This document shows, one piece after another, positions 1,276 to 3,059 of a stretch of 64,000 nucleotides of DNA. The notes beneath the pieces are model-generated. The model saw only the letters and a list, made by a program, of their open reading frames with translations, did no database searches and was not told the DNA's origin. Source of the stretch: Actinomycetes bacterium. GTDB taxonomy: Bacteria; Actinomycetota; Thermoleophilia; Solirubrobacterales; 70-9. Made by a program: the position numbers and the translations under genes. The first letter of the stretch is position 1, and each line of letters starts with the position of its first letter. The DNA is taken from the NCBI GenBank assembly GCA_016861045.1, contig BOKP01000003.1, positions 373,501 to 437,500 of the forward strand. Reading direction: 5' to 3'.

Positions 1276-2172
1276 ATGCCGCGCGCGATCTGGACAGGCA
1301 CGATCAGCTTCGGGCTCCTGAACGTGCCCGTGAAGCTCTATTCCGCGGTCTCGAGCAAGGCGATCCGCTTCCGCGAGCTGCGCGCGAAGGACGGCTCCCG
1401 AGTGCGCCACAAACGCGTCGCCGAGGCCGACGAGGAGGAGGTCGCGTACGAGGACCTCGTCAAGGGCTACGAGATCGCTCCCGACCGGTACGTGATCCTC
1501 TCCCGCGCCGAGCTCGAGGCGCTCGATCCGAAGCGGTCGAAGGCGATCGAGATCGAGGACTTCGTCGACCTCGAGCAGATCGACCCGATCTACTTCAACC
1601 AGCCCTACTACCTCGGCCCGGCGCCGGGCGCCGAGCGCGCCTACGCCCTGCTCGCCGAGGCGATGGGCGAGCAGCGGAAGGTGGCGATCGCCCGCTTCGT
1701 CCTCCGCAACCGCGAGAGCCTGGCGGCGATCCGGGCGGCCGATGGCGTGCTGACGCTGGCGACGATGCGGTTCGCCGACGAGGTCGTCCCGCCGGCCCAG
1801 CTCGAGGGCCTGCTCGGCGAGGAGCCGGAGACGCCGCCGCGCGAGCAGGAGGTCGAGATGGCGAAGCGGCTCATCGAGTCGCTGGCGAAGGACTTCGACC
1901 CGGGTGCCTACGAGGACGAGCATCGGGCCGAGCTGCTGGCGATGATCGAGCGCAAGGCCGCCGGCGAGGACGTGCTCGCGGCCGCGCCCGAGGCGCCGAA
2001 GCCGACCCGGGCGCCGGACCTGATGGCCGCCCTCGAGGAATCGCTGGCGGCGATCGAGGGCGAGGAGCTCGGCGGCGCCGGCAAGCCGGCGAAGCCGAAG
2101 GCCCGCAAGGCGGCCGCCAAGAAGCCGGCGAGCAAGGCGAAGAGCAAGTCGAAGGCCAAGGCCGCGAAGTAG
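1276..2172 (+). CDS. ku: Ku homodimeric DNA end-binding protein
   Basis: Bacterial Ku threads onto broken DNA ends and recruits LigD for non-homologous end joining. The N-terminus MPRAIWTGTISFGLLNVPVK is the hallmark of the bacterial Ku core. The 298-residue protein has the usual core of about 250 residues followed by a Lys/Ala-rich tail (KPKARKAAAKK and on), a feature of many actinobacterial Ku proteins that helps DNA binding. The partner polymerase gene begins right at the stop codon in the -1 frame, an unusual arrangement described under findings. The start ATG follows a spacer shared with the divergent trpS. Confidence 0.96.
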   Translation: MPRAIWTGTISFGLLNVPVKLYSAVSSKAIRFRELRAKDGSRVRHKRVAEADEEEVAYEDLVKGYEIAPDRYVILSRAELEALDPKRSKAIEIEDFVDLEQIDPIYFNQPYYLGPAPGAERAYALLAEAMGEQRKVAIARFVLRNRESLAAIRAADGVLTLATMRFADEVVPPAQLEGLLGEEPETPPREQEVEMAKRLIESLAKDFDPGAYEDEHRAELLAMIERKAAGEDVLAAAPEAPKPTRAPDLMAALEESLAAIEGEELGGAGKPAKPKARKAAAKKPASKAKSKSKAKAAK

Positions 2173-2249
2173 AGATCGACGGCCGCCGGCTGTCGATCAC
2201 CAACCTCGACAAGGTCCTCTACCCCGAGGCGGGCTTCACCAAGGGCGAG

Positions 2250-3059
2250 GTGATCGACTACTACGTCCGGATCGCGCCGGCGCTGCTGCCGCACCTGCGC
2301 GACCGCCCGCTCACCGTCGTCCGCTTCCCCGACGGCGTCGAGGGCAGGCACTTCTTCGAGAAGAACAGCCCCTCGCACCGTCCCGGCTGGGTCCGGACGG
2401 CGCCGATCGGGGTCGGCGGCCGGGCCGGAATCGTCGAGTTCACCGTCTGCGACGACCTGCCGACGCTCGTCTGGCTCGCCCAGCTCGCGGCGATCGAGCT
2501 CCACCCCTCGCTCGCCCTCGCATCCGACCACGAGCGCCCGACGGTGCTCGCGTTCGACCTCGATCCGGGCGAGCCGGCGACGGTCGTCGAGTGCTGCGCG
2601 GTGGCGCTGCGGATCCGCGAGCTCTTCGCCGAGCTCGGGCTGGCGGCGTTCCCGAAGACGTCGGGGGCGAAGGGGATGCAGGTCTACGTGCCGCTCAACG
2701 GGGAGCTCACCTACGCGACGACCAAGCCCTACGCGCGCGCCGTCGCGCGGGCGCTCGAGAGCGCCGAGCCCGGCCTCGTCACGTCGCGGATGACGAGGTC
2801 GCTTCGACCCGGCAAGGTGTTCGTCGACTGGAGTCAGAACACGCGCACGAAGACGACCGTCGCCGCATACTCGCTGCGGGCCGGGGCGCTGCCGACGGCC
2901 TCCGCCCCGCTCCGCTGGGACGAGGTCGAGGCGGCGGCTTCCGCGAGCAGCCCGGACGAGCTCCGGTTCGGCGCCGGAGAGGTCCTCGAGCGGTTCGGGC
3001 GCGACGGCGACCTGTTCGCGCCGGTGCTCGAGCTCGAGCAGGAGCTGCCGAGCCTCTGA
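2250..3059 (+). CDS. LigD-type NHEJ polymerase domain protein (start uncertain)
   Basis: Stand-alone primase/polymerase domain of the LigD type, which fills or extends DNA ends held by Ku. AFDLDPGEPA holds the catalytic Asp pair, EGRHFFEKN the phosphate/NTP-binding region, and MTRSLRPGKVFVDWSQN the conserved C-terminal block. No ligase or nuclease domain is attached. The first standard start codon is GTG 2250, but family-conserved residues (SITNLDKVLYPEAGFTKGE) are encoded just upstream from about 2193. That upstream frame has no ATG, GTG or TTG and stays open into ku. Either a non-canonical start (CTG 2190, ATC 2175) or a -1 frameshift from ku must supply them. The function is clear; the true 5' end is not. 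Confidence 0.88.
   Translation: MIDYYVRIAPALLPHLRDRPLTVVRFPDGVEGRHFFEKNSPSHRPGWVRTAPIGVGGRAGIVEFTVCDDLPTLVWLAQLAAIELHPSLALASDHERPTVLAFDLDPGEPATVVECCAVALRIRELFAELGLAAFPKTSGAKGMQVYVPLNGELTYATTKPYARAVARALESAEPGLVTSRMTRSLRPGKVFVDWSQNTRTKTTVAAYSLRAGALPTASAPLRWDEVEAAASASSPDELRFGAGEVLERFGRDGDLFAPVLELEQELPSL

What the first reader, a model, noticed from the sequence alone, without database searches (positions are those of the whole stretch)
2100..2260. NHEJ polymerase whose conserved N-terminus has no start codon and lies in the -1 frame of ku
Residues essential to the LigD polymerase fold (SITNLDKVLYPEAGFTKGE) are encoded before the first ATG/GTG/TTG (GTG 2250). The frame stays open upstream into ku without any standard start and is exactly the -1 frame at the ku stop (GCG AAG TAG read as GTA GAG). 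The enzyme may start at a non-canonical codon, be made as a Ku-Pol fusion by -1 frameshifting, or reflect a one-base error.
Basis: partly seen in the sequence, partly recalled or inferred. Interest (0 to 1): 0.6.

Follow-up and report, generated by a model that had tools for sequence, protein, structure and literature searches.

The report
Repair polymerase gene lacking standard start
In a family of actinobacteria, the gene for a DNA-break-repair polymerase sits right behind (or overlapping) its partner gene ku and has lacked any normal start codon since the common ancestor of five genera, so its protein is probably begun at a rare, weak start codon (AUC) by ribosomes that have just finished making Ku.

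Summary
In the window, ku (1276-2172) ends in TAG. The frame of the LigD-type polymerase is the -1 frame there, is open back to 1239, and has no ATG/GTG/TTG before GTG 2250. The same startless junction occurs in ten further genomes of the same family (five genera including the window's). In four of them the first standard start lies 72 or 88 codons downstream, yet the N-terminus is under normal purifying selection. A Ku+Pol tree groups these loci in one clade (support 84/91).

The mechanism is inferred. No slippery heptamer or shared slip site exists, so a -1 frameshifted Ku-Pol fusion is disfavoured but not excluded. In genera g4 and g12, a block invariant in 14 of 15 bases begins exactly at an in-frame ATC (33 bases before the window's ATC 2175). 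Two Ku-silent A's there are the only all-A third positions among 579 codon columns. A sister pair has CTG where its relative has GTG. I conclude that Pol is started at a near-cognate codon by ribosomes terminating on ku. In the window the best candidate is AUC 2175, two bases after UAG, less certain than in g4/g12.

Known kind of process; apparently unreported for this gene pair.

The parts
1276..2172 (+). ku, bacterial NHEJ end-binding protein, 298 aa, ATG start, TAG stop; the only ku in the genome
   Evidence: PF02735 171 bits, TIGR02772 302 bits; single Ku match in the genome
2175..3059 (+). NHEJ polymerase (LigD primase-polymerase domain, stand-alone), written from the candidate AUC start
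   Evidence: PF21686 282 bits, TIGR02778 277 bits, PDB 2iru E 3.9e-64
2170..2172 (+). ku stop codon TAG, lying inside polymerase-frame codons GTA GAG
   Evidence: sequence; same TAG in all 11 startless loci
2175..2177 (+). ATC, best candidate near-cognate start in the window, two bases after the ku stop; ATC in 4 of 4 loci of g1+g6
2148..2150 (+). GTC, roughly at the place of the conserved ATC of genera g4, g5 and g12; weaker candidate start
   Evidence: GTC in 4 of 4 loci of g1+g6
2169..2171 (+). GTA overlapping the TAG stop (GTAG, the geometry of GTGA overlaps); weaker candidate start
   Evidence: GTA present beside TAG in all 11 startless loci
2174..2198 (+). 11-bp hairpin with 3-base loop directly after the ku stop; kept in L004, L005, L007, absent in g12
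   Evidence: z about -2 against synonymous recodings; p 0.025 to 0.07 per locus
2250..2252 (+). GTG, first standard start codon in the polymerase frame; would cut off the conserved TNLDKVLYP region; not conserved in relatives

Best explanation
ku and a stand-alone LigD-type polymerase form a translationally coupled pair in which the polymerase has lost its standard start. Ribosomes that finish ku at UAG, or that are held nearby, begin the polymerase at a near-cognate codon read by the initiator tRNA. Within the startless clade this is AUC: at -33 in genera g4 and g12, at -30 in g5, and probably at 0 (window 2175-2177, UAG-AG-AUC) in g1+g6, which include the window. In the sister genus g9 it is CUG at -24. 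The expected result is little polymerase relative to Ku, made only where ku is translated. Shown: the startless junction, its conservation, purifying selection on the N-terminus, the conserved block starting at ATC in g4+g12, and the lack of slip sites. Inferred: that AUC is the actual start, that coupling drives it, and its position in the window's own genus.
For: Startless junction in 11 loci of 5 genera, one clade in a Ku+Pol tree with 84/91 support. N-terminal codons 0 to +75 under the same purifying selection as codons +75 to +150 (pN/pS 0.44 and 0.35 against 0.49). First standard start at +216 or +264 in L004, L006, L009 and L017, so internal starts cannot serve. In g4+g12 every ungapped column from -60 to -34 varies and -33 to -19 is invariant but for -22, which is silent for the polymerase. 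A-ending codons in Ku's last 10 codons 19/60 against 16/420 before them, nominal p 4e-10. Of 579 aligned Ku and Pol codon columns only two have A at the third position in all five genomes, and these are the first bases of polymerase codons ATC and AAG. L009 has ATC three codons after an in-frame stop. g9 has CTG at -24 where its sister L014 has GTG. No Shine-Dalgarno before any candidate, nor reliably before the GTG starts of relatives, as expected for coupled genes. AUC is a known rare bacterial start (PMC9094748, citing Hecht 2017).
Against: In the window's own genus the conserved ATC of g4+g12 is replaced by GTC, and the ATC at 2175 is an ordinary I/V position that is ATC in 4 of 11 controls too. 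Residues before 2175 (V, E) also look conserved, which would favour an earlier start such as GTA 2169. Near-cognate starts are weak: ATT about 0.3% and CUG 0.86% of AUG in E. coli (PMC10666635, PMC11497404). Six related genomes are not six independent observations, the Fisher p ignores phylogeny, and ungapped alignment upstream of -33 may exaggerate the boundary if there is an indel. No expression data exist.
Confidence: 0.55

Rival explanations
1. Programmed -1 ribosomal frameshifting near the end of ku makes a Ku-Pol fusion protein, and the polymerase has no start because it needs none.
For: The polymerase is in the -1 frame of ku in all 11 startless loci; a strong hairpin follows the stop in g1+g6; Ku is known to bind the LigD polymerase domain (PMC9638933), so a fusion would make sense.
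Against: No tandem slippery heptamer in any of the 11 loci and no shared single-codon slip site; L001, L005, L006 and L009 have none within 100 bases or the whole permitted stretch. The hairpin is not conserved in g12, and controls with GTG starts have similar structure scores. In L009 the polymerase frame is blocked 37 bases before the ku stop. Group B would need a +1 shift instead.
Confidence: 0.2
2. Reinitiation at GUA 2169, which overlaps the UAG stop by two bases (GUAG) in the geometry of the common GUGA overlap.
For: Present beside TAG in all 11 startless loci, and it moves with the stop by 6 bases in L009; related genera of family f3 have a real GTGA overlap (L132, L138, L152).
Against: Its presence is forced by AAG TAG in this frame; GUA is not among the start codons of table 11 and is not reported as a natural start in anything I found; it does not explain the block starting at ATC in g4+g12.
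Confidence: 0.12
3. The polymerase really starts at GTG 2250 or another internal standard codon, and the upstream homology is untranslated.
For: GTG 2250 is the first standard start; Pfam PF21686 still matches nearly whole.
Against: In L004, L006, L009 and L017 the first standard start is 72 or 88 codons into the protein. The N-terminal codons evolve under purifying selection like the rest, and solved PolDoms contain this region.
Confidence: 0.04
4. One-base sequencing or assembly error or recent mutation in this genome.
For: Window genome is an assembly in five contigs; none otherwise.
Against: The same startless junction in ten other assemblies from five genera, 60 to 84% identical in the polymerase.
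Confidence: 0.01

Closest known systems
Bacterial NHEJ Ku (TIGR02772) and LigD polymerase domain (PF21686, TIGR02778)
   Same: Both proteins are plain members by profile score and adjacent in the usual order.
   Different: The polymerase is a stand-alone gene with no ATG/GTG/TTG; relatives outside the clade have GTG or TTG.
Translational coupling by termination-reinitiation (PMC10666635)
   Same: Adjacent or overlapping genes, no reliable Shine-Dalgarno; relatives show GTGA overlaps or short gaps.
   Different: The start is not a standard codon; the genes overlap by 31 bases in g4/g12 and are 2 bases apart if AUC 2175 is used in the window.
Natural near-cognate starts in bacteria (for example AUU of infC, from general knowledge; AUC, AUU, AUA listed as rare starts in PMC9094748)
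   Same: Initiator tRNA would read a codon with a third-base mismatch, giving low yield.
   Different: Here conserved over several genera inside or beside an overlap with ku; regulation by IF3 as in infC is not shown.
Programmed -1 frameshift genes (dnaX type)
   Same: Downstream frame is -1; a hairpin follows in g1+g6.
   Different: No slippery sequence in any locus.

Membership tests
LigD primase-polymerase (PF21686 / TIGR02778) | Profile match above the curated cut-off over the full domain | tested here: met
   282 bits against cut-off 27.4; 277 against 214.7
Bacterial Ku (TIGR02772) | Profile match above cut-off over the full length | tested here: met
   302 bits against 150
Gene with a near-cognate start codon | No standard start in frame and an ATC/ATT/ATA/CTG at a plausible N-terminus | tested here: met
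   All 11 startless loci have ATC between -33 and 0; g9 has CTG at -24
Gene with a near-cognate start codon | Conservation in the gene's own frame begins at the proposed start | tested here: inconclusive
   Met in g4+g12; not decided in g1+g6, the window's group
Gene with a near-cognate start codon | Initiation at the codon shown by protein or ribosome data | not testable with these tools
   no expression data
Programmed -1 frameshifting | Downstream frame is -1 of the upstream gene | tested here: met
Programmed -1 frameshifting | Slippery sequence allowing re-pairing | tested here: not met
   none in 11 loci
Programmed -1 frameshifting | Conserved stimulatory structure | tested here: inconclusive
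   hairpin in g1+g6 only; mean z -1.26 against -1.10 in controls
Stop codon readthrough to an in-frame fusion | Downstream gene in frame with ku | tested here: not met
   -1 frame in the clade; out of frame also in L114, L116, L025 of genus g11

The most novel reading that the evidence does not exclude
A whole clade keeps a non-standard start (AUC) on an NHEJ polymerase gene that overlaps or abuts ku, under selection at nucleotide level, as a built-in device that keeps the mutagenic polymerase scarce and tied to Ku synthesis; a sister genus reached the same end with CUG.
Probability: 0.35. Interest if true: 0.6.

Novelty: new variant of a known kind. Interest (0 to 1): 0.5.

Why it matters
Conserved natural starts outside ATG, GTG and TTG are rare in bacteria and are missed by gene callers, which would report this polymerase truncated by 13 to 88 residues depending on the genome (25 in the window). 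If confirmed, it shows start-codon weakness kept over long evolution to set the ratio of two repair partners, one of which is mutagenic. It also gives a clean test bed for reinitiation at near-cognate codons.

Tried and rejected
In-frame TAG readthrough: many GTG-start relatives have ku and pol in the same frame with gaps of 27 to 42 bases, which looked like a constraint, but L114, L116 and L025 break it. Reassignment of TAG: TAG ends 16 of 60 predicted genes in the window, so it is an ordinary stop. Conserved stimulatory structure: not general. Shine-Dalgarno as a guide to the start: weak for all candidates and for control GTG starts. Pol-only tree did not resolve the clade; Ku+Pol did. Literature searches for a Ku/LigD frameshift or non-standard start found nothing relevant in the held library; the primary 64-codon paper was not held, so efficiencies are quoted second hand.

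Full report
OBSERVATION. The window carries ku at 1276-2172 (+) followed by a stand-alone LigD-type polymerase ending at 3059. The polymerase frame is open from 1239 and has no ATG, GTG or TTG before GTG 2250. At the junction GCG AAG TAG AG ATC GAC GGC, ku reads A-K-stop while the polymerase frame reads GAA GTA GAG ATC GAC GGC. Profiles and solved structures place the segment before GTG 2250 (DGRRLSITNLDKVLYPEAGFTKGE) inside the polymerase domain. Below, positions are given relative to the first base of ATC 2175 (position 0).

NOT AN ERROR. Searching the family (50 genomes), the order (232 genomes) and one genome per species of GTDB release 220 gave about 165 loci (loci counted). Group A, the startless junction in the -1 frame, comprises L001, L004, L005 (genus g1, the window's), L006 and L017 (g4), L007 (g6), L009 (g5), and L008, L010, L011, L018 (g12). 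Genus labels are anonymous handles. Named same-genus records are Solirubrobacterales bacterium HKST-UBA61 and Conexibacter sp. QR_Bin.2. In all of them ku ends AAG TAG, at -5 (at +1 in L009, through a 6-base insertion that keeps both frames). Group B (L012, L015; g9) has the polymerase in the +1 frame with CTG at -24. Group C has GTG, rarely TTG, at -21 to -30. Apart from group A and one Chloroflexi locus (L093, ATT at -36), no other complete locus lacks a standard start back to its in-frame stop.

AGE. A pol-only tree did not resolve the family. A concatenated Ku+Pol tree puts group A in one clade (84/91), next to the group formed by L014 (GTG) and group B (CTG) (support moderate). Polymerases within group A are 60 to 84% identical, so the state is old and stable.

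THE N-TERMINUS IS TRANSLATED. In group A codons 0 to +48 and +48 to +75 show pN/pS 0.44 and 0.35, against 0.49 for +75 to +150. The first standard start lies at +216 in L004, L006 and L009 and at +264 in L017, so an internal start would destroy the domain.

HOW IT IS STARTED. (a) Frameshift: no X XXY YYZ heptamer in any locus, and no single slip-prone codon shared; in L009 the polymerase frame is closed by TAG 37 bases before the ku stop, leaving no slip site at all. The window's 11-bp hairpin at 2174-2198 is kept in g1+g6, but not in g12, and controls score alike. (b) Readthrough: frame relation excludes it. (c) Near-cognate start: every group A locus has an in-frame ATC between -33 and 0. 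In g4+g12 (six genomes) all ungapped columns from -60 to -34 vary and -33 to -19 (ATC GCG AAG CAR GGC) are invariant but for one polymerase-synonymous change that alters Ku. Ku's last ten codons there are enriched in A-ending codons, 19/60 against 16/420. Of 579 Ku and Pol codon columns the only two with A at the third position in all five aligned genomes are those that supply the first bases of ATC and AAG; at the ATC column the Ku codon itself varies (CGA, AAA, AGA), so it is the A that is kept. Ku tails of genus g11, where no overlap exists, do not show this. L009 has ATC GCG at -30 right after the in-frame stop. In g1+g6 the corresponding codon is GTC, while ATC stands at 0, two bases after TAG, and the segment from -11 to +20 has one difference among four genomes. 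Group B has CTG exactly where its sister L014 has GTG.

INTERPRETATION. The simplest account is that the polymerase is begun by the initiator tRNA at AUC (CUG in g9) by ribosomes delivered by ku. Neither the candidates nor the GTG starts of relatives have a consistent Shine-Dalgarno sequence, which fits coupling. Among 44 ku-coupled polymerases the start is GTG in 28, TTG in 3, ATG in 1 and none of these in 12, against ATG in 32 of 60 predicted genes of the window, so weak starts seem to be the rule for this gene. This comparison is rough and not corrected for relatedness. Literature efficiencies for near-cognates are below 1% of AUG in E. coli (PMC10666635, PMC11497404), which would make the polymerase scarce relative to Ku. 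That scarcity is the function is my inference.

LIMITS. All loci are assemblies, mostly from metagenomes. The decisive block is in g4+g12, not in the window's genus, where AUC 2175, GUA 2169 and GUC 2148 remain open and the frameshift is not excluded. Statistics ignore phylogeny. No papers describing this junction were found in the held library, which is not proof of novelty.

Noticed in passing
L012, L015 (genus g9), position -24: The polymerase has CTG where the sister genome L014 has GTG, and no nearby standard start; a second, independent case of a near-cognate start in this gene.
   Followed up: partly
L093 (Chloroflexi bacterium CF_105), pol frame from -36: Polymerase with no ATG/GTG/TTG back to its in-frame stop; ATT at -36 is the only near-cognate codon; ku ends 225 bases upstream.
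   Followed up: no
44 ku-coupled pol loci: Start codons are almost never ATG (1 of 44) and ku ends in TAG in 34 of 44, while TAG ends only 16 of 60 predicted genes in the window.
   Followed up: partly
window 2174-2198: Perfect 11-bp hairpin with a 3-base loop directly after the ku stop; in L004 and L005 changes turn pairs into G-U without breaking them.
   Followed up: partly
G000:C1:546611-548760 (L002, L167): The genome's only ATP-dependent ligase domain lies next to a second, distant polymerase homologue on the opposite strand, away from ku.
   Followed up: no
L133 (G141): Polymerase followed by what look like two successive ku genes in one run (read by eye from the sequence).
   Followed up: no
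L132, L138, L152 (genus g46): ku and pol joined by a GTGA overlap at -24, the standard form of coupling in the same order.
   Followed up: yes
L018 (G027): The ku frame is interrupted about 400 bases before pol, although its tail and junction match the other g12 genomes; possibly an assembly error.
   Followed up: no
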